Below are positions 2,546-15,831 of a stretch of 37,456 nucleotides of DNA, one piece after another. The notes under the pieces were generated by a model that was not told where the DNA came from, ran no database searches, and saw only the letters and a program-made list of their open reading frames with translations. The position numbers were made by a program, and so were the translations under genes. The first letter of the stretch is position 1. Every line of letters begins with the position of its first letter. This DNA comes from Gammaproteobacteria bacterium TMED1. Its GTDB lineage: Bacteria > Pseudomonadota > Gammaproteobacteria > Pseudomonadales > Azotimanducaceae. Location of the stretch: assembly GCA_002167855.2 (NCBI GenBank), contig NHBG02000003.1, positions 30,388 through 67,843 of the forward strand, written 5' to 3'.

Positions 2546-3802
2546 TCAGTCTGTGATTGCACCATAAGCCGCAGCCCGGAGCTGTCGTCGGATAGGATGG
2601 CTTCCCGAAGGAACTAACTGGGTCAAAAATAGTACCGCCATATCTTCATCTGGCGAGATGAAGAAGGCCGTCGAGGCCATCCCTCCCCAATAAAACTCGC
2701 CCGGAGTCCCGATGACCTGAGCCGCTGTTGGGTCAAGTAAAACCGCGAAGCCGAGGCCAAATCCAATGCCTTCCATTGTAGTTTCGGCGAACTGTGGCTG
2801 ACCCATCGCCGCAAGATCGCGATTTTCAGGTAGATGATTTACAGTCATATAGTCTAATGTTCGGCTTCCAATAATTCGTTCCCCATTTAGGGCTCCCCCA
2901 GCAGCTAACATCTTGCAGAACTCAAGATAATCTTTCGCTGTCGAAACCAGCCCTCCTGAACCCGAAAAGTAGGTCGTCGGTCTCAAAAATCGACTTTTTT
3001 GGGGCGAATCTTCCAACTCATAATACTTGCTACCATTTACTCCAACCCGATAACAAGCACAGAGCCTATCTGCGTTAATTGGGTCCACGGAAAATCCTGT
3101 ATCAAACATTCTCAGTGGATTAAAAATATATTTTTGAAGATACTGCTCGAATGATTCCCCGGATAATACTTCGCAAAGATATCCTACAATATCGGTTGAG
3201 ATCCCGTAATTCCATTCCGAACCGGGATCACAGTGCAAAGGAAGCGTGCCCAAAACCTTAACCATCGATGATAAATTTGCCCCACTATAGAGGTTTGCCT
3301 CCCGATATAGACCACCAACACGCGTTCCTTCCACTATTCGCCATTTTGAGGATGTCGCTACCAGCCCTGAGGTATGCATCAACAAGTCTCGAACTGTCAT
3401 CTCTCTTTGCGGCTCTCTCATGGACTCAGTTTCAATGCGTTTAGAAGCTTTGAGAACCTTGAGGTTTGCAAGTTCAGGAATAAAACGACTCACCGGATCA
3501 TCCAGTTGAAAAAGACCCGATTCATAGAGCTGCATAAGCGCTATGCTAGCTATCGGTTTAGTCATCGAATATATCCGAAAAATGGCGTCTTTTGTCATCA
3601 CCCTTCCTGCTTCATCATCCATATTTCCATGGACGGATTCATACACTAGCTTGCCATCGCGAACGACCATACAAATTGCCCCAGGAAGCTTTCCTTCGTC
3701 TACATACCTCTCGATAAGCCCATATAAATTATTGAGTTTTTTGCTCGACATCCCCACCGACTCCGGCGTGACCTCGCAACTTTCACTAACCTTTTTTTCC
3801 AT
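2546..3802 (-). CDS. Serine beta-lactamase-like hydrolase/esterase (class C fold)
   Basis: A 418-residue protein of the beta-lactamase/EstB-like serine hydrolase family. The nucleophile motif is S79-M-T-K82 in YSMTKPIASIAL, the second motif is around Tyr199 (WNYGIS), and WGG at 372-374 takes the place of the KTG box of true class C beta-lactamases. HTSGL (143-147) is also typical. The WGG box and the lack of a signal peptide suggest an intracellular esterase or peptidase-like enzyme rather than a resistance enzyme; the substrate is unknown. I placed the start at ATG 3802 because AAGGAG sits eight bases upstream; a TTG six codons earlier would overlap that site. It stands alone, convergent with pabBC and divergent from the Xaa-Pro aminopeptidase gene. 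Confidence 0.87.
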   Translation of the reverse strand: MEKKVSESCEVTPESVGMSSKKLNNLYGLIERYVDEGKLPGAICMVVRDGKLVYESVHGNMDDEAGRVMTKDAIFRIYSMTKPIASIALMQLYESGLFQLDDPVSRFIPELANLKVLKASKRIETESMREPQREMTVRDLLMHTSGLVATSSKWRIVEGTRVGGLYREANLYSGANLSSMVKVLGTLPLHCDPGSEWNYGISTDIVGYLCEVLSGESFEQYLQKYIFNPLRMFDTGFSVDPINADRLCACYRVGVNGSKYYELEDSPQKSRFLRPTTYFSGSGGLVSTAKDYLEFCKMLAAGGALNGERIIGSRTLDYMTVNHLPENRDLAAMGQPQFAETTMEGIGFGLGFAVLLDPTAAQVIGTPGEFYWGGMASTAFFISPDEDMAVLFLTQLVPSGSHPIRRQLRAAAYGAITD

Positions 3803-3959
3803 TAGTCTTCTCCTTATCAAGAGGATAACTCAAACGAACAGTTTTTTCCGAAGCATTAAAGTACAATGCAAAACTTTTCGAGACCCGATGAAATGAGTAT
3901 ATTTAGAGTTCTGGAAAACCTCTCTTTGCAAGTTTAACGGATGGAATTAAGTAAGCGAT

Positions 3960-8916: not shown

Positions 8917-9600
8917 ATGTTACAGCAAGATGGACTGATTTTAGAGCAAATTCAAATTGGGCCTATGGATAATTTTACCTACTTACTAGGCTGTAAACGT
9001 ACACGAGAAGTTGTGATTGTGGATCCTGCCTGGGATATAGAAAGTCTAGTGAGAATTATTAATGAAAAAGACTACACGCTCAAAGCAGCACTCGTTACAC
9101 ACTACCATCCTGACCACTGCGGCGGATCTTTTGGGAAAAGAAATGTCCAGGGAGTAGCAGAATTAATGGAGCAACATTTAATCAAAGTGTACTCCAATAA
9201 ATTGGAAGCCGATGGCCTAAAAAAAGTTACTGGTATTTCCGAAACGGATATTGTGAAAGTGGCATCAGGTGACACCTTAAAAGTCGGCGACATTGAGATC
9301 CAATTTCTGCATACCCCAGGCCATACGCCAGGATCTCAATGCTTCAAGATAAAAAGAACACTAGTATCTGGGGATACTCTTTTTGTTAACGGATGTGGTC
9401 GGGTTGATCTTCCTGGATCTAACGTTGATGAAATGTATCGCAGCCTTCAGAAACTTGCTTCCCTACCTAAAAACACGCTTCTACTGCCAGGACATAATTA
9501 TGGCCACATACCTCACGCCACGATAGAAGAAACCATTCAACACAATCCATATATGCGTATCTCTAGTCTTGAAAACTGGCGTATGATGCTCAATCATTGA
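8917..9600 (+). CDS. Metallo-beta-lactamase-fold hydrolase (glyoxalase II-like)
   Basis: 227 residues with the complete metal-binding set of the metallo-beta-lactamase superfamily: THYHPDH (His62, His64, Asp66, His67), TPGH with His136, SGDTLF with Asp153 and PGHNYG with His193. [10 protein letters not shown] at 159-168 is typical of GloB/YcbL-like and persulfide-dioxygenase-like members. It probably acts on a thioester or related small molecule in the cytoplasm, but the sequence does not settle whether it hydrolyses hydroxyacylglutathione. ATG 8917 has AGGAA nearby upstream and lies 24 bases after asnS. Its last seven bases overlap the end of convergent rnhB. Confidence 0.87.
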
Positions 9601-10181
9601 TGAAGCATTTCTTTGCACGGTGTGAAGGACATCCTATGTATTGGGCAAAGTCCCAATCTCTTTAGGGCCGCAAGGTGCATAGGAGTTGGATAACCCTTGT
9701 GTTGAGCAAAACCGTATCCAGGATATAGCGAATCGAGTTCACACATTTCAGTGTCACGAGCTACCTTCGCAACAATTGAAGCAGCCTTAATAGCATCAAA
9801 TTTTGTATCCCCCTTAACTAAGCAACCTGACGGACAGCTGAATGGGGGAGCACGATTACCGTCCACCAAGACAAAATCGAGAGGCACACGCAAACCATTT
9901 ACTGCACGCTGCATAGCTAATAAACTGGCTTCAAGAATATTTATTCTATCAATTTCTTCAACATCCACCCGTCCAATGGAAAAATCAGCAGATGCAGAAC
10001 AAATTATAGCATTGAGTTCCTCTCTTCTCTTGGCACTTAATGCTTTCGAATCTCTCAATCCGTCGATGCCAATAAACGGATCTAACACCACTGCCGCGGC
10101 ATAGACTGGCCCTGCAAGAGGCCCTCGGCCAACCTCATCAACCCCCGCACAGTACTCACAACGATACATAGGTCCGGTCAC
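9594..10181 (-). CDS. rnhB: Ribonuclease HII
   Basis: Cleaves RNA in RNA-DNA hybrids, including single ribonucleotides in DNA. The 195-residue length fits the family (198 in E. coli). Catalytic carboxylates are visible as Asp15-Glu16 in [12 protein letters not shown], Asp107 in LVDGNR and Asp125 in KGD, followed by the family motif [11 protein letters not shown] and [11 protein letters not shown]. The start is uncertain. GTG 10181 lies 13 bases after AAGGAG, while ATG 10169 gives a start nearer to some homologues. Either way it overlaps the end of lpxB, so translational coupling is likely. It is the last gene of the large minus-strand block; dnaE and accA, which follow in relatives, are not here. 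Confidence 0.96.
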
Positions 10182-11319
10182 AAAGCTGAAGGATCTCCTT
10201 GGCCGCCAGCTTGCCAGAATTGAGACTTAGCTTTTTATGGATGCAATCAAATTCTGACATTAGGTCCTCCTGAGGTTCCCTAATAAGTTCAACCATGGCT
10301 TTCGCCAGAGCCTCCGGTTTAGCTGCTTGCTGGATAAACTCAGGTACTAAATCTTTTTGGGCAAGGATATTTGGCAAGGCAAAACGTTGGGTCTGCAAAA
10401 GACTTGATACCAATTTGTATGTTATTTCATTCAACCTATAAGCCACCACCATGGGTCTTCGCAGTAACATAGCTTCCAAAGTTGCGGTACCCGATTTCAC
10501 TAACACAGCATCTGCTGCCGTCATTGCTGTTATCGAGCTATCCGTAACGATAACCGGGACGTTTGGAACTATAGAATGCCATAATCGTGTAATCTGCTCG
10601 GCCCTCTTGCAGTTCGTCGCCGGGACCACAAATTTACAATTCAAGGCCTCTGATAATAGTTTTGCTGTGCGAAAGAAAGCCGGTCCAATTAAAGATACTT
10701 CGCTAGATCTGCTTCCTGGGAGGATGGCTACTACAGTATCGGTACGCGAAAACCCCATTAACGCCCTAGCGGTTCTTTTTTCTTTGTATCCAGTATCAGG
10801 ATTAATTTCGAGGGCCTTTGGGTGGCCGACATAGCGCACAGGGATATCATTGTTTTTATAGATCTCAGTTTCGAACGGGTATAGTGTTAGCATGAGATCA
10901 ACATTTTGTTTTATCCTACGAACTCTCCCTGCCCGCCAAGCCCAAACGCTCGGAGAGACATAGTGAGCTGTAGGTACTCCAGTTTTTTTCATTAGCCCTT
11001 CTAGAAAACCATTAAAGAAGTTGTAATCAATACCTACAAAGCAGTCAGGATCAAATTTTTTCAATGCAGATCTTGTGGAAAAAAATATACTGGTCAATTC
11101 AGGAATTTTTTTTATCGGAAATCCATTTACTGACAAACGATCTATATTATGGAGAGAATTGAAGCCCTCCGCAGCCATTGCTGGCCCTCCAATTCCAGAG
11201 AACAGAATTGTAGAACGCTGCTCTTTCAACGCCCTTATCAAAGAAGCGCCGAGGCTGTCTCCAGAGGGCTCGCCCGCTAGAATCGCTATTTTTAGTGGCC
11301 TATTCTCCTGTTCAGTCAC
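10156..11319 (-). CDS. lpxB: Lipid-A-disaccharide synthase
   Basis: GT19 glycosyltransferase that joins UDP-diacylglucosamine and lipid X to form the lipid A disaccharide on the inner face of the inner membrane. The 387-residue protein shows GEPSGD (16-21), GID near the E. coli Asp98 position (followed by YNFFN rather than APDFN), [26 protein letters not shown] and LPNILA. The start is GTG 11319, with no strong ribosome site. It follows fabZ directly after 21 bases; lpxA, which normally lies between them, is missing. Its 3' end overlaps rnhB. Confidence 0.96.
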
Positions 11320-11340
11320 GAAAGACCAATAACCATAAAG

Positions 11341-11778
11341 TTAACTAACCTTTTGTTCCGCACAAGTGAGTTGGGAGGAGCAGACCAGCTCGTTACTCAC
11401 AAAAGCCTTACCAGCAACCTTCATCCAATGATTACGAAGATTTATGATTTCAACCTCAAGCTTAAGCTGATCTCCTGGCACAACCGAACGTTTGAATTTC
11501 GTTTTGTCTGTGCCGGCCAAATAATAAATGTATCCATCCTCTGGGCTTCGCTCAAGACTTTTAAATGCAAGAATACCCGAGGCTTGAGCAAGAGCTTCCA
11601 CAATAAGCACGCCGGGAAAGACGGGTGTAACTGGGAAATGACCCTGGAAAATTGCCTCATTTATCGTGATGTTCTTAATAGCTAAGATTCTTTTTTCGGG
11701 CTCAAGCTCAAGGACTCTATCCACAAGTAAAAAGGGGTAACGATGCGGTAAATATTTCTGAATCTCAATGACGTCCAT
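11341..11778 (-). CDS. fabZ: 3-hydroxyacyl-[acyl-carrier-protein] dehydratase FabZ
   Basis: Hot-dog-fold dehydratase of type II fatty acid synthesis that removes water from beta-hydroxyacyl-ACP. The 145 residues include LPHRYPFLLVDRV (10-22), the catalytic His47 in QGHFP and Glu61 in EALAQ, all normal. It competes with the LpxA/LpxD acyltransferases for hydroxyacyl-ACP, which explains its usual place in this cluster. Its ATG overlaps the lpxD stop codon by one base (TAATG), so the two are likely translationally coupled. lpxB, not lpxA, is the next gene downstream. Confidence 0.97.
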   Translation of the reverse strand: MDVIEIQKYLPHRYPFLLVDRVLELEPEKRILAIKNITINEAIFQGHFPVTPVFPGVLIVEALAQASGILAFKSLERSPEDGYIYYLAGTDKTKFKRSVVPGDQLKLEVEIINLRNHWMKVAGKAFVSNELVCSSQLTCAEQKVS

Positions 11779-12794
11779 TAGTCACCTCTTTCAGACTCAA
11801 GTTTACGCACTCGCTTAAACAAGTTAGATAATCGTTTGAAAGCGGCTATATTTCGCTTCCAATCACGGCCACGCATTAGACCCGTCCCAGAAGAGTATCG
11901 CCCTCTAACTGTTATCGATTGAGTCACTAGGCTCATAGCAGTCACCTCCACCTGATCCGTAATCTCAATATTATCGATTATTCCTACGGCACCCCCAATC
12001 CAACAATTTCTACCGATTCGAGTGCTTCCGGCAATCGCCGTACAACCGGATATGATGGTATCCCCACCAATTCGAGTCGCATGTCCTATCTGAACCTGAT
12101 TATCGATCTTAACACCATCCTCAACGACAGTATCACAAAGAGCGCCTCTATCAATGGTTGTACCAGCGCCTATTTCCACATCATCTCCAATTACTACACC
12201 GCGGATTTGAGGAATTTTCACAAACGCTCCTTTGTTTGGCTCGAAACCAAAACCATCTGCTCCAATTACCGCCCCACTATGAATCGTTACCCTATCACCT
12301 AAGCAAACCATATGATAAAGAGTTACATTTGGAAATACTCTACAATGTTCACCGATCTTTGAACCTTCACCAACAAACGATCCAGCACCTATTGTGCTTC
12401 CATCTCCTATTACCGCCCCTGCGGAAATAACACTATGAGGACCCATACTTACTCCCGCCCCTATAATCGCTTGGTCACTAACGATTGCAGATGGGTGTCG
12501 TGTAGCGGCTTGCATGGGAAGAGGGTCAAACAATTTGGCGACGTTAGCCCAGGTTAATCTCGGACGCTCTGATATGAGGTAAGGTATTTGGCAATCCGTA
12601 CAATCGATTTCTCGCATTACAACGGCACTAGCCTTAGTATCAGTCAGGTGCTTTCTGTGCGACGAGTTAAATAAAAAGACTAGATCTCCGTGAACTGCTT
12701 GGTCAATACTGGCTAAGTTCGATATTTCAATAGCTGGGTCTCCCTTTAGGGAGAGATCAAATCTGTCTGCAATTTCACCAAGACTTAACTTCAA
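11778..12794 (-). CDS. lpxD: UDP-3-O-acylglucosamine N-acyltransferase
   Basis: Adds the second hydroxyacyl chain in lipid A synthesis. The 338-residue protein has an N-terminal uridine-binding domain (about 1-100), a left-handed beta-helix of hexapeptide repeats (about 103-285) and a basic helical C-terminus. The catalytic histidine is His238 in QIGHATRIG. The second histidine of E. coli LpxD (His276 in NGHMEI) aligns with Asn275 here (IIDNIEI). The start is TTG 12794, the only usual start codon after the in-frame stop at the end of skp. It lies 15 bases after skp and overlaps fabZ by one base. Confidence 0.95.
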   Translation of the reverse strand: MKLSLGEIADRFDLSLKGDPAIEISNLASIDQAVHGDLVFLFNSSHRKHLTDTKASAVVMREIDCTDCQIPYLISERPRLTWANVAKLFDPLPMQAATRHPSAIVSDQAIIGAGVSMGPHSVISAGAVIGDGSTIGAGSFVGEGSKIGEHCRVFPNVTLYHMVCLGDRVTIHSGAVIGADGFGFEPNKGAFVKIPQIRGVVIGDDVEIGAGTTIDRGALCDTVVEDGVKIDNQVQIGHATRIGGDTIISGCTAIAGSTRIGRNCWIGGAVGIIDNIEITDQVEVTAMSLVTQSITVRGRYSSGTGLMRGRDWKRNIAAFKRLSNLFKRVRKLESERGD

Positions 12795-12809: not shown

Positions 12810-13331
12810 TTAGTTCGCTGAAGTGTCCATTTCATTTAATTTCTCTGTAACTTTCCGCGTTATATCATAAAGGTCACCCACATAAAGCGCGGCATTTCTG
12901 GGCAAAATTACGTCATAATCATCACTCTTGACAAGATCCTCTATTGCCTTCTGCAGGCGAACCTCTGTCCCTGAAAACAGCTCAGTCTGTCGGGTTTGTA
13001 TTTTATTCTGCAGCTTCTGACGAAGATAAGAGAAATCATTCTCTTTCTCCTCAATTTGCTTTTGAAGCTTCATTTTCTCGGCATCGGACATAACTTCCGA
13101 ATCTTTCTGCAGGCGTTGAATCAGTGAGGCAGCGTCAGAGGAAACCTGCCGAATCTCAGCCTCTTCATCTTTAAACTCTTCTCCGATTTGTGCCTGAAGT
13201 TTCTTTGCTTGCTCCGAGGACAAGATAGCTCGCTGCACATCGACGAAGGCGATTTTCATCTCAGCAAGAACGGATGAAGAAATTAAGGTCATCACCACGC
13301 TAATTGCGACGGCTGAAATATGGTGTCTCAT
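12810..13331 (-). CDS. skp: Periplasmic chaperone Skp/OmpH
   Basis: 173 residues with a clear signal peptide (basic MRHH, hydrophobic core, predicted cleavage after VLA at 23). The mature protein begins EMKIAFVDVQRAI, then a long charged helical hairpin rich in K, E and Q (about 45-130), as in the Skp jellyfish-tentacle trimer that carries unfolded outer-membrane proteins to BamA. The ribosome site AAAGGAGG lies seven bases before ATG 13331. Placement between bamA and lpxD is the standard context. Confidence 0.93.
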   Translation of the reverse strand: MRHHISAVAISVVMTLISSSVLAEMKIAFVDVQRAILSSEQAKKLQAQIGEEFKDEEAEIRQVSSDAASLIQRLQKDSEVMSDAEKMKLQKQIEEKENDFSYLRQKLQNKIQTRQTELFSGTEVRLQKAIEDLVKSDDYDVILPRNAALYVGDLYDITRKVTEKLNEMDTSAN

Positions 13332-13440: not shown

Positions 13441-13511
13441 GACTTTAAAGTCGGACCACCCTCCAGTGGGCACAAGTCAGTAGACACAAGTGCATTTTTA
13501 GAAGGTCCGAC
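13441..13511. repeat. Palindrome and inverted repeat between bamA and skp
   Basis: A perfect 12-base palindrome GACTTTAAAGTC lies at 13441-13452. Overlapping it, GTCGGACC at 13450-13457 is the exact reverse complement of GGTCCGAC at 13504-13511, which sits in the last codons of bamA. The 46-base spacer also has two copies of the 7-mer CACAAGT. The transcript could fold as a long hairpin at the bamA 3' end, but there is no T-run after it, so it does not look like a classic terminator. Confidence 0.45.
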
Positions 13512-15831
13512 CAATTTCAAATTGAAAAACCTCAGATTCATCTCCACTTTTTTCATTGAAAGGAAAAGCTAACGCAAAGCTTAAGGGAGCGAATCCGGTT
13601 ATCCAAGTCACCGCTAACCCCGCACTGTATCGAAGTTCACCATCCTCAATATCGTTGCAAATAACAGATACGACTGCACAGTTAGTATTAAAGACATTTC
13701 CAGCATCGAGGAAAAGAACGGACTTTATCTGCTGCCGATCTTTAACAAAAGGTAGCGGAAACAATATCTCTGCGCTCGTCTCCACCAGGACGTTACCACC
13801 TATGGGATCGAATCGCGCATAGTTATCAAGAGGGGAAGGTGTTCCTCGAGGGCCGAGAGTATTATCTTTGTATCCACGGATAGAACCCATTCCTCCAGTG
13901 TAGAAATTCTTGTAAAATGGGAACACATCCGTATCGCCGTAAGCCTCTCCGTAACCAAGATCAGCCCGTAGTCTAAGGGTAAATAATCGACTCAAGGGGA
14001 AGAAAATTTGCCCAGCGTAATTAATTCGGAAAAATTCAAGATCACTTCCCGGAAGAGTCATTTCCAATGATACAGATTGAGATCGCCCTGCATTTGGTAA
14101 CAAGCCGCGATTTAAAGCAGACATAACATAGCTACCTGTCAAGGTATATAAATCAAACTCATTACCTTCTTCAGCAAGAAACCTTGATATCTCTTGGGCA
14201 GGAAAAATCCCTTCTTTAAGGACTGTGCTCTCGAACCCCAGATTAAAGCCTAATCGGGAAACTTCACTCAAGGGATATCCGAAATTTATAGAGCCTCCGA
14301 ACGAATCCGTAGAAAATCTAGCAATATTACGTTCTTCGAAATCGCTTTCCCTAAAAAATACTGAATACCCCCTACTTACTCCATCCAAAGTGTAATATGG
14401 ATCCATAAAAGAGAAGTTAAAGGCTTTCTGAAAATCACTTCTATTAATTCCTATACCAACACTATTCCCAGTACCGAATACATTATTTTCTTGATAGTTC
14501 GCGCCCAGAATGAGGCCAAAATCTCCGGCATAACCAAGACTTGCAGAAATAGCGCCAGATGGCTGCTCCTCTACCGTATAATTCACGTCGATTTGATCTT
14601 CAGTTCCCGGAACTGAAGGTGTTTCCACACTAACTTCTTTAAAAAAACCTAGGCGCTCCAAACGAACCTTGGAATGCTCGATGGCTGCCGTGGAAGCCCA
14701 ACCACCCTCCATTTGCCGCATTTCACGGCGCAAAACTTCATCATGGGTAGCGGTATTTCCTCTGAAGGTAATTCTTCGAACATATGCCCTCTTACCTGCG
14801 TCGATGAAGAACTTTACACTTACGGTCTCGCCACCTTCATCAATAATTGGTTCTCCTGTCGCGCTGGCAAACGTATACCCTGCATTACCTAGAACCCTCT
14901 CTATCCTCTCCTCCGTCGAGGTCATCAACTGCCTAGAAAAGACCTGGCCTGGGCTAGAGAGAATTAACGACCGAATTGTTTCCTCAGGAATCTCAAATAA
15001 CTCGCCAGCAATATCTACTGCCGAAATATTAAACTTATCACCCTCAATTAAATTTACTGTGATGTACACATCCTCCATATTTGGAGCAATTGACACTTGA
15101 GTAGACTCAATAGCAAAATTTAGGTAACCCCGATCAAGGTACCAAGACTCAAGACTTTCTAGATCTGACTCAAGCTTCTCCTTCGAATATTGATCGTCTT
15201 TCTTCCAGAATAAAAGCCATGACCAAGGCGAGAGCTTTAATTCCATCAATTCTAGTAGAGTGACGTCATCCCAAAGGGTATTACCAACGATATTAATATG
15301 TTTGATACTAGCAACATTGCCTTCGTCTACATTAACTTTCACAAGCACTCGATTTCTTGGAAGAGCGATGACTTCTGTTTCTATGCTTGCATCATAACGA
15401 CCCTGAGATACATACTGACGCTCAAGACCAGCCGCTATATATTCTAAGGTAACCTTCTTGAAAATCTGACCAACAGCCAACCCAGAATCAGATAGACCAT
15501 CAAGTAAGTCTTCGGTTTTAATTGCCTTGTTACCTTCTATCTCTATCTGGTCAATTGAAGGTCTTTCATTAACAATGATAACTAAAACATCACCATCCCT
15601 CCCAACTTGAACGTCATCGAAAGAACCCGTTTCAAACAATGATTGAACAATCAATCGTACATCTAGCTCATCTATATCATCACCCGTATTAAAGGGGATA
15701 GAACCAAATACTGTTCCAGCCGATACCCTTTGTAAACCCTGAACCCTCACGTCATTAAAAACAAACGCATTGGCATTGGAAAAGGTAAAGGTAAAAGCCA
15801 ATATAAAAATCCAATTTCGTAGTTGAATCAC
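13498..15831 (-). CDS. bamA: Outer membrane protein assembly factor BamA
   Basis: Omp85-family core of the machine that inserts beta-barrel proteins into the outer membrane. The 777 residues comprise a signal peptide ending at ANA (about 22), five POTRA domains (about 23-425) and a 16-strand barrel domain (about 430-777). The loop-6 motif appears as SIRGYKDN, corresponding to the family VRGF/Y motif, and the protein ends in phenylalanine (FEIGRTF), the usual outer-membrane barrel signal. It starts at GTG 15831, six bases after rseP. skp follows after a 166-base spacer with its own ribosome site and dyad symmetry. Confidence 0.97.
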   Translation of the reverse strand: MIQLRNWIFILAFTFTFSNANAFVFNDVRVQGLQRVSAGTVFGSIPFNTGDDIDELDVRLIVQSLFETGSFDDVQVGRDGDVLVIIVNERPSIDQIEIEGNKAIKTEDLLDGLSDSGLAVGQIFKKVTLEYIAAGLERQYVSQGRYDASIETEVIALPRNRVLVKVNVDEGNVASIKHINIVGNTLWDDVTLLELMELKLSPWSWLLFWKKDDQYSKEKLESDLESLESWYLDRGYLNFAIESTQVSIAPNMEDVYITVNLIEGDKFNISAVDIAGELFEIPEETIRSLILSSPGQVFSRQLMTSTEERIERVLGNAGYTFASATGEPIIDEGGETVSVKFFIDAGKRAYVRRITFRGNTATHDEVLRREMRQMEGGWASTAAIEHSKVRLERLGFFKEVSVETPSVPGTEDQIDVNYTVEEQPSGAISASLGYAGDFGLILGANYQENNVFGTGNSVGIGINRSDFQKAFNFSFMDPYYTLDGVSRGYSVFFRESDFEERNIARFSTDSFGGSINFGYPLSEVSRLGFNLGFESTVLKEGIFPAQEISRFLAEEGNEFDLYTLTGSYVMSALNRGLLPNAGRSQSVSLEMTLPGSDLEFFRINYAGQIFFPLSRLFTLRLRADLGYGEAYGDTDVFPFYKNFYTGGMGSIRGYKDNTLGPRGTPSPLDNYARFDPIGGNVLVETSAEILFPLPFVKDRQQIKSVLFLDAGNVFNTNCAVVSVICNDIEDGELRYSAGLAVTWITGFAPLSFALAFPFNEKSGDESEVFQFEIGRTF

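What the first reader, a model, noticed from the sequence alone, without database searches (positions are those of the whole stretch)
11320..11340. lpxA is missing from the conserved fabZ-lpxA-lpxB cluster
fabZ is followed after only 21 bases by lpxB, while lpxD, skp, bamA and rnhB are in their usual order. In most gammaproteobacteria lpxA lies between fabZ and lpxB. There is no remnant and no room for one. LpxA catalyses the first step of lipid A synthesis, so either it has moved elsewhere, or another acyltransferase does the job, or the lipid A pathway has changed in this lineage. It is unusual to keep LpxD and LpxB here without LpxA.
Basis: partly seen in the sequence, partly recalled or inferred. 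Interest (0 to 1): 0.55.

Follow-up and report, generated by a model that had tools for sequence, protein, structure and literature searches.

The report
Lipid A gene swapped and moved
The gene for the first step of lipid A (endotoxin) synthesis is missing from its usual cluster because, in this bacterial lineage, the original copy was lost and a differently related version at another place in the genome took over.

Summary
In detail: fabZ and lpxB are 21 bases apart with no lpxA between them, as in all six genomes of the genus readable there. The genome has one lpxA on another contig, over NCBIfam's cut-off, beside fabA-fabB. The rest of the lipid A/LPS set searched for is present. So the lineage did not abandon lipid A. 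It is not a plain move either. In this family the native cluster LpxA was displaced several times by a distinct LpxA clade ('type A'), mostly sited between a HAD-hydrolase gene and fabA; in the window's species and its nearest relative a third clade ('type B') sits at that site in the opposite orientation. One genome keeps a 135-codon probable remnant between fabZ and lpxB. Foreign origin is supported for type B (AU p 0.007) but not settled for type A (p 0.096). The window genome's only lpxA has an in-frame stop at codon 76; whether it is real is unresolved. In passing: six genomes of the order lack lpxA, B, C and K yet keep LptD and LptF/G.

The parts
11320..11340 (-). junction left where lpxA lies in cluster-type relatives
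   Evidence: 21 bases between fabZ stop and lpxB start; 768 bp or more in 20 of 20 cluster-type relatives
11341..11778 (-). fabZ
   Evidence: TIGR01750 196.5 bits, cut-off 155.15
10156..11319 (-). lpxB
   Evidence: TIGR00215 284.2 bits, cut-off 190.25
11778..12794 (-). lpxD
   Evidence: TIGR01853 349.7 bits, cut-off 242.5
12810..13331 (-). skp-like gene
   Evidence: ORF; name from sequence and position (recalled), same order in relatives
13498..15831 (-). bamA-like gene
   Evidence: ORF; name from sequence and position (recalled), same order in relatives
9594..10181 (-). rnhB-like gene
   Evidence: ORF; name from sequence and position (recalled), same order in relatives

Best explanation
The native lpxA of the lpxD-fabZ-lpxA-lpxB cluster was displaced by a second LpxA gene elsewhere. 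Shown: the family holds three well-separated LpxA clades. 'Cluster' LpxA sits between fabZ and lpxB; 'type A' sits, in 20 genomes, between a HAD-hydrolase gene and fabA-fabB; 'type B' sits in the window's genome and in G005 at that same site in the opposite orientation. Inferred: an ancestor of the window's clade gained a second LpxA at the HAD/fabA site, which made the cluster copy redundant; the cluster copy was deleted and fabZ and lpxB closed up. Later, in part of the window's genus, a foreign type B lpxA replaced type A at that site. The LpxA now in place supplies the first step, acylation of UDP-GlcNAc, to ordinary lpxC, D, H, B, K and KdtA genes. The in-frame stop at codon 76 of the window genome's copy is either a consensus error or a very recent loss in the sampled strain, since the rest of the gene is under strong purifying selection.
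For: One LpxA over the cut-off at G000:C7:77874-78617. Rest of the pathway present. Same HAD/fabA site holds an lpxA in 23 genomes, type A in 20 and type B in 3, the latter on the other strand. LpxA tree: cluster clade 22 rows (100/99), type A 25 rows (100/100), type B 5 rows (100/100); B+cluster as one clade rejected, AU p 0.007. Neighbour-gene tree: window clade of 22 displaced genomes (SH-aLRT 100), with G036, G037 and G013+G045 displaced separately. Intermediates: G036 has a 135-codon probable lpxA remnant between fabZ and lpxB; G014 and G039 hold type A at the site and type B elsewhere; G004 has a degenerate type B at the site and an intact one elsewhere. pS 0.726, pN 0.026 between G000 and G005 lpxA.
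Against: The only lpxA of the window's genome has an in-frame stop at codon 76, and no other mid-gene stop between conserved flanks was seen in 223 orthologues, so a plain error is not the obvious reading. Type A with cluster as one clade is not rejected (AU p 0.096), nor A with B (p 0.236), so type A's foreign origin is unproven; several branches are long. The G036 remnant scores nearly as high for LpxD (66.8 bits) as for LpxA (69.5). No donor was found.
Confidence: 0.8

Rival explanations
1. Plain relocation: the native lpxA moved to the fabA site and then diverged quickly, so that types A and B descend from the cluster gene.
For: Type A with cluster as one clade is not rejected (AU p 0.096); branches leading to A and B are long.
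Against: B with cluster is rejected (p 0.007). Type A and type B stand at one site on opposite strands, and G014 and G039 hold both. G036 keeps a probable remnant of the cluster gene beside fabZ while carrying type A elsewhere.
Confidence: 0.12
2. The stop is real and the sampled strain no longer makes lipid A, or makes it through a second lpxA in the unassembled 3.5% of the genome.
For: In-frame stop at codon 76 in the only copy found; no other mid-gene stop between conserved flanks among 223 orthologues, so bases look reliable; related genera have lost the pathway.
Against: All other pathway genes searched are present; the gene is under strong constraint (pN/pS about 0.035); of 87 genomes with a match over the cut-off only this one has an internal stop. 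Not exclusive with the best explanation, which concerns the lineage.
Confidence: 0.25
3. Another acyltransferase does LpxA's job and the lpxA-like gene is something else.
For: If the stop is real and lipid A is still made, something would have to. Other TIGR01852 matches in the genome are lpxD (66.6 bits) and a short hexapeptide protein (23.1 bits).
Against: An LpxA over two curated equivalog cut-offs exists and is conserved in the sister genome; neither other match comes near the cut-off.
Confidence: 0.02
4. Assembly or strain deletion at the window.
For: The window's genome is a 25-contig assembly.
Against: The same junction is in five further genomes of the genus and in other genera.
Confidence: 0.01

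Closest known systems
Gammaproteobacterial bamA-skp-lpxD-fabZ-lpxA-lpxB-rnhB cluster
   Same: Same genes in the same order except lpxA; PMC3087551 (passages) describes clusters of lpxA, C, D, B that mostly include fabZ.
   Different: lpxA is absent and fabZ and lpxB have closed up.
LpxA, acyl-ACP--UDP-N-acetylglucosamine O-acyltransferase (TIGR01852, NF003657)
   Same: Type B of G005 and type A of G001 score over both cut-offs.
   Different: Both lie outside the clade of cluster LpxA proteins of the order; the window genome's own copy is interrupted.
lpxA duplication, as noted for Geobacter sulfurreducens in PMC3087551 (passage)
   Same: Two LpxA genes in one genome (G014, G039).
   Different: Here the two copies are of different clades, and in other species one of them has become the only one.
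[quoted passage not shown]
   Same: An interrupted lpxA with other pathway genes kept.
   Different: Here it is one environmental assembly and the stop is unverified.

Membership tests
LpxA family (type B, as in the window's genome) | Score over the curated cut-off of the LpxA models | tested here: met
   G000 match read across the stop 290.1 bits, cut-off 231.05; G005 copy 290.2 and 309.6 bits, cut-offs 231.05 and 226. The part downstream of the stop alone is below both (189.4 and 204.7).
LpxA family (type B, as in the window's genome) | Conserved catalytic histidine motif | tested here: met
   HVAHDC in G000 and G005; the role of these histidines is recalled. The position equivalent to a further histidine (VHQF in G085) is V in type B and P in cluster LpxA of the family.
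LpxA family (type B, as in the window's genome) | One uninterrupted reading frame | tested here: not met
   Stop at codon 76 of 257 in G000; open in G005.
LpxA family (type B, as in the window's genome) | Acyltransferase activity on UDP-GlcNAc | not testable with these tools
   Needs an assay or complementation.
fabZ-lpxA-lpxB cluster | lpxA between fabZ and lpxB | tested here: not met
   21-base gap; no remnant.
Complete lipid A pathway in the genome | lpxA, C, D, H, B, K and KdtA all present | tested here: inconclusive
   All found, but lpxA is interrupted.
Foreign-gene displacement | Resident gene falls outside the clade of the native gene | tested here: met
   Type B: clade outside the cluster set, AU p 0.007. 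For type A the same test is inconclusive (p 0.096).
Foreign-gene displacement | Identified donor lineage | tested here: inconclusive
   One scan of genome contigs gave 12 loci: two match contigs of this family by length, ten are 36-48% identical over the 180-residue query; the tree places B beside none of those with support.

The most novel reading that the evidence does not exclude
Lipid A synthesis is unusually loose in this group of Gammaproteobacteria. The first enzyme has been swapped repeatedly, and at least four related genera (g11, g14 and g36 of the family, g45 of another family) have lost the pathway (lpxA, lpxB, lpxC, lpxK, KdtA) while keeping the LPS exporter proteins LptD and LptF/G. 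In those the Lpt bridge would carry another lipid to the cell surface; the window's strain, with its stop in lpxA, may be at the start of that road.
Probability: 0.4. Interest if true: 0.8.

Novelty: new variant of a known kind. Interest (0 to 1): 0.5.

Why it matters
LpxA makes the first intermediate of lipid A, and its gene normally stays in a conserved cluster in this order. Here one family shows several separate displacements of it (four changes, at least three forced), a probable fossil, genomes with two copies and a second swap at the same site, so the order of steps in displacing a core gene can be read from living genomes. If the pathway-less relatives are confirmed, they would be natural test cases for what the Lpt machine moves when there is no LPS.

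Tried and rejected
Assembly or strain deletion: rejected, the same junction is in congeners. lpxA wholly lost from the genome: rejected. Remnant of lpxA in the window: none found. A shared reason for a break near codon 76: considered because G004's site copy also breaks near there; rejected because that copy is degenerate in other ways (frameshift, catalytic histidine changed) and the breaks are of different kinds. A high base-error rate as the cause of the stop: not supported; 1 of 223 orthologues has a mid-gene stop between conserved flanks; the other hits listed lie at most 17 residues from an end, or in one case (residue 32 of 229) in a poorly conserved stretch. In the reverse direction (220 orthologues) G005 shows one clearly broken gene, orthologous to window 2546-3820. 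Plasmid search for the lpxA DNA: no match. Donor search: inconclusive. Names of genus and family: not obtained, since the genomes bear none; two contigs are matched to public records only by equal length (45,782 and 5,034 bases). Literature: eight searches listed no paper that I recognised as describing lpxA displacement in Gammaproteobacteria or pathway loss with Lpt kept; I read passages only of PMC3087551 and PMC12444477. The search terms were narrow and the library lacks most subscription journals.

Rows dropped: the LpxA tree holds 92 proteins. G004's degenerate site copy, genomes without lpxA, and family genomes whose lpxA region was not fetched (G028, G048, G051, G052) or held only a partial match (G031) are not in it; of the order, only genomes among the 30 loci returned are in it. 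L054 and L055 were left out as repeats of G005 and G014. The lpxD+fabZ+lpxB tree has 60 rows; G014 and G060 are not in it and G006 lacks lpxB.

Full report
What is in the window. On the minus strand the order is bamA-like, skp-like, lpxD, fabZ, lpxB, rnhB-like. fabZ ends at 11341 and lpxB begins at 11319, leaving 21 bases. NCBIfam confirms lpxB, fabZ and lpxD over their cut-offs. A tblastn with 92 LpxA proteins hits only lpxD in the window.

Where lpxA is. The window's assembly (G000, 2,163,751 bases, 25 contigs, 96.5% complete) has one match over the LpxA cut-off, C7:77874-78617 (+), 290.1 bits; the next matches are lpxD at 66.6 bits and a short hexapeptide protein at 23.1 bits. It lies between a HAD-hydrolase gene and a galE-like gene on one side (Pfam) and genes that look like fabA and fabB, then a phoB/phoR-like pair, on the other (these names are recalled from sequence, with only a weak match of the fabA-like gene to the FabZ model). 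So lpxA is no longer beside one 3-hydroxyacyl-ACP dehydratase gene (fabZ) but beside what looks like another (fabA). FabZ and LpxA compete for the same substrate in E. coli according to PMC12444477 (passages); whether the new position matters for that balance is speculation.

Is the rest of the pathway there? Yes: lpxC (C17, 357.9 bits), lpxK (C7, 257.4), lpxH (C20, 267.5), KdtA N-domain (C13, 185.3), LptD (C17, 211.5), two LptF/G (C10), lpxB and lpxD in the window.

The gene has an in-frame stop. Codon 76 of 257 is TAA in G000; the nearest relative G005 has a sense codon there and an open gene of 257 codons at the same site. The two genes differ by 131 synonymous and 15 non-synonymous changes (pS 0.726, pN 0.026), so the gene was under strong constraint until very recently. 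Of the 87 genomes with a match over the cut-off only G000 has an internal stop. To judge base quality I compared 298 G005 ORFs with 428 kb of G000: 223 had an orthologue at 55% identity or more (76,588 aligned residues), and lpxA was the only one with a stop in mid-gene between well-conserved flanks. That makes a high error rate unlikely but cannot exclude a single consensus error. A second copy in the missing 3.5% is also possible. I leave this open.

Comparison in the family. The 97 genomes hold 61 of this family, own included. The distance between fabZ and lpxB falls into two classes: 20 of 20 measured cluster-type genomes have 768 bp or more, 24 of 25 displaced ones have 114 bp or less and G036 has 406 bp; 14 of 14 from other families have 751 bp or more. 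In 23 genomes an lpxA lies between the HAD gene and fabA/fabB: G000-G006, G014 and G039, and G007, G008, G025, G027, G029, G030, G033, G035, G043, G046, G055-G058. In three of these (G003, G025, G035) my ORF caller did not name fabA and fabB alone marks the site. In 20 of the 23 the gene is type A; in G000, G004 and G005 it is type B and points the other way. G013, G045, G037 and G060 have type A at another site between two genes that I did not identify by search, and G036 at yet another.

Tree of LpxA. With 92 proteins (IQ-TREE) the family's cluster LpxAs form one clade of 22 (100/99) that groups with those of other families; type A is a clade of 25 (100/100) and type B one of 5 (100/100), both outside the 52-row cluster set (98/84). 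Several branches are long, so I tested: B with cluster as one clade is rejected (AU p 0.007), A with cluster is not (p 0.096), A with B is not (p 0.236). Foreign origin is therefore supported for type B, the one in the window's genome, and only suggested for type A.

Tree of the neighbours. lpxD+fabZ+lpxB of 60 genomes (SH-aLRT only) puts 22 displaced genomes, the window's among them, in one clade (100), and G036, G037 and G013+G045 apart among cluster-type genomes. Four changes of state are needed, at least three forced by well-supported branches. This means repeated displacement, with type A either spread within the family or kept from an older duplication.

Intermediates. G036 has a 135-codon open frame between fabZ and lpxB (L112:3455-3862) with 73 residues 48% identical to a cluster LpxA; NCBIfam gives it 69.5 bits for LpxA and 66.8 for LpxD over the N-terminal part only, so it is read as an lpxA remnant mainly by position. 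G014 and G039 hold type A at the site and type B elsewhere. G004 has a type B gene at the site that is frameshifted and has a changed catalytic histidine, and an intact type B on another contig. These are the states that displacement by a second copy predicts.

How it most likely works. LpxA of type B (in G005 and, but for the stop, in G000) does the ordinary first step. Shown: family membership by score, conserved histidine motif, conservation. Inferred: activity, and the order of gain, redundancy and loss. The role of the histidines is recalled.

A wider pattern, noticed on the way. G016, G047, G019, G050, G041 (three genera of the family) and G068 (another family of the order), 91-100% complete, have no match over the cut-off for lpxA and no match at E 0.001 for lpxC, lpxB or lpxK; KdtA is absent but for a 21.3-bit match in G041, under the cut-off; lpxH has only weak matches in G016 and G047. 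In all six, skp, fabZ and rnhB are next to each other with no lpxD, lpxA or lpxB found. LptD and two LptF/G matches are kept in all six. In G068's family 1 of 6 genomes has lpxC. Family-wide, 172 of 206 genomes have an LpxA over the cut-off; all five of genus g11 and both of g14 have only weak matches. LpxD was not searched genome-wide. G031 and G009 lack part of the set. My few searches did not find this in print.

Verdict. The finding is real and explained: displacement of lpxA, not loss of lipid A synthesis by the lineage. The in-frame stop and the pathway-less relatives are the open points.

Noticed in passing
G016, G047, G019, G050, G041, G068 (L066-L071, L074-L078): These six genomes (91-100% complete) lack lpxA, lpxB, lpxC and lpxK, with skp-fabZ-rnhB closed up, yet keep LptD and LptF/G.
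   Followed up: partly
L080:5540-8470 (G000:C7): One 976-residue frame holds an ABC exporter (residues 53-552) and LpxK (667-971), an apparent MsbA-LpxK fusion; lpxK lies in frames of 979-1025 aa in G000, G002, G005 and G009.
   Followed up: partly
family f1: 21 of 61 family genomes show two lpxC matches (in G033 two fragments), often of different score.
   Followed up: no
window 2546-3820; G005:C32 about 33.7-34.9 kb: The window's 424-residue gene (beta-lactamase-like serine hydrolase by recall) is open here but broken in the sister genome G005.
   Followed up: partly
L072 (G031): A partial cluster-type lpxA lies between fabZ and rnhB with no lpxB, and lpxC, lpxB, lpxK and KdtA were not found in this genome, a possible half-way state of pathway loss.
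   Followed up: partly
G009 (L073): No lpxA, lpxB or LptD match, but a partial lpxC and an lpxK are present; fabZ is followed by rnhB.
   Followed up: no
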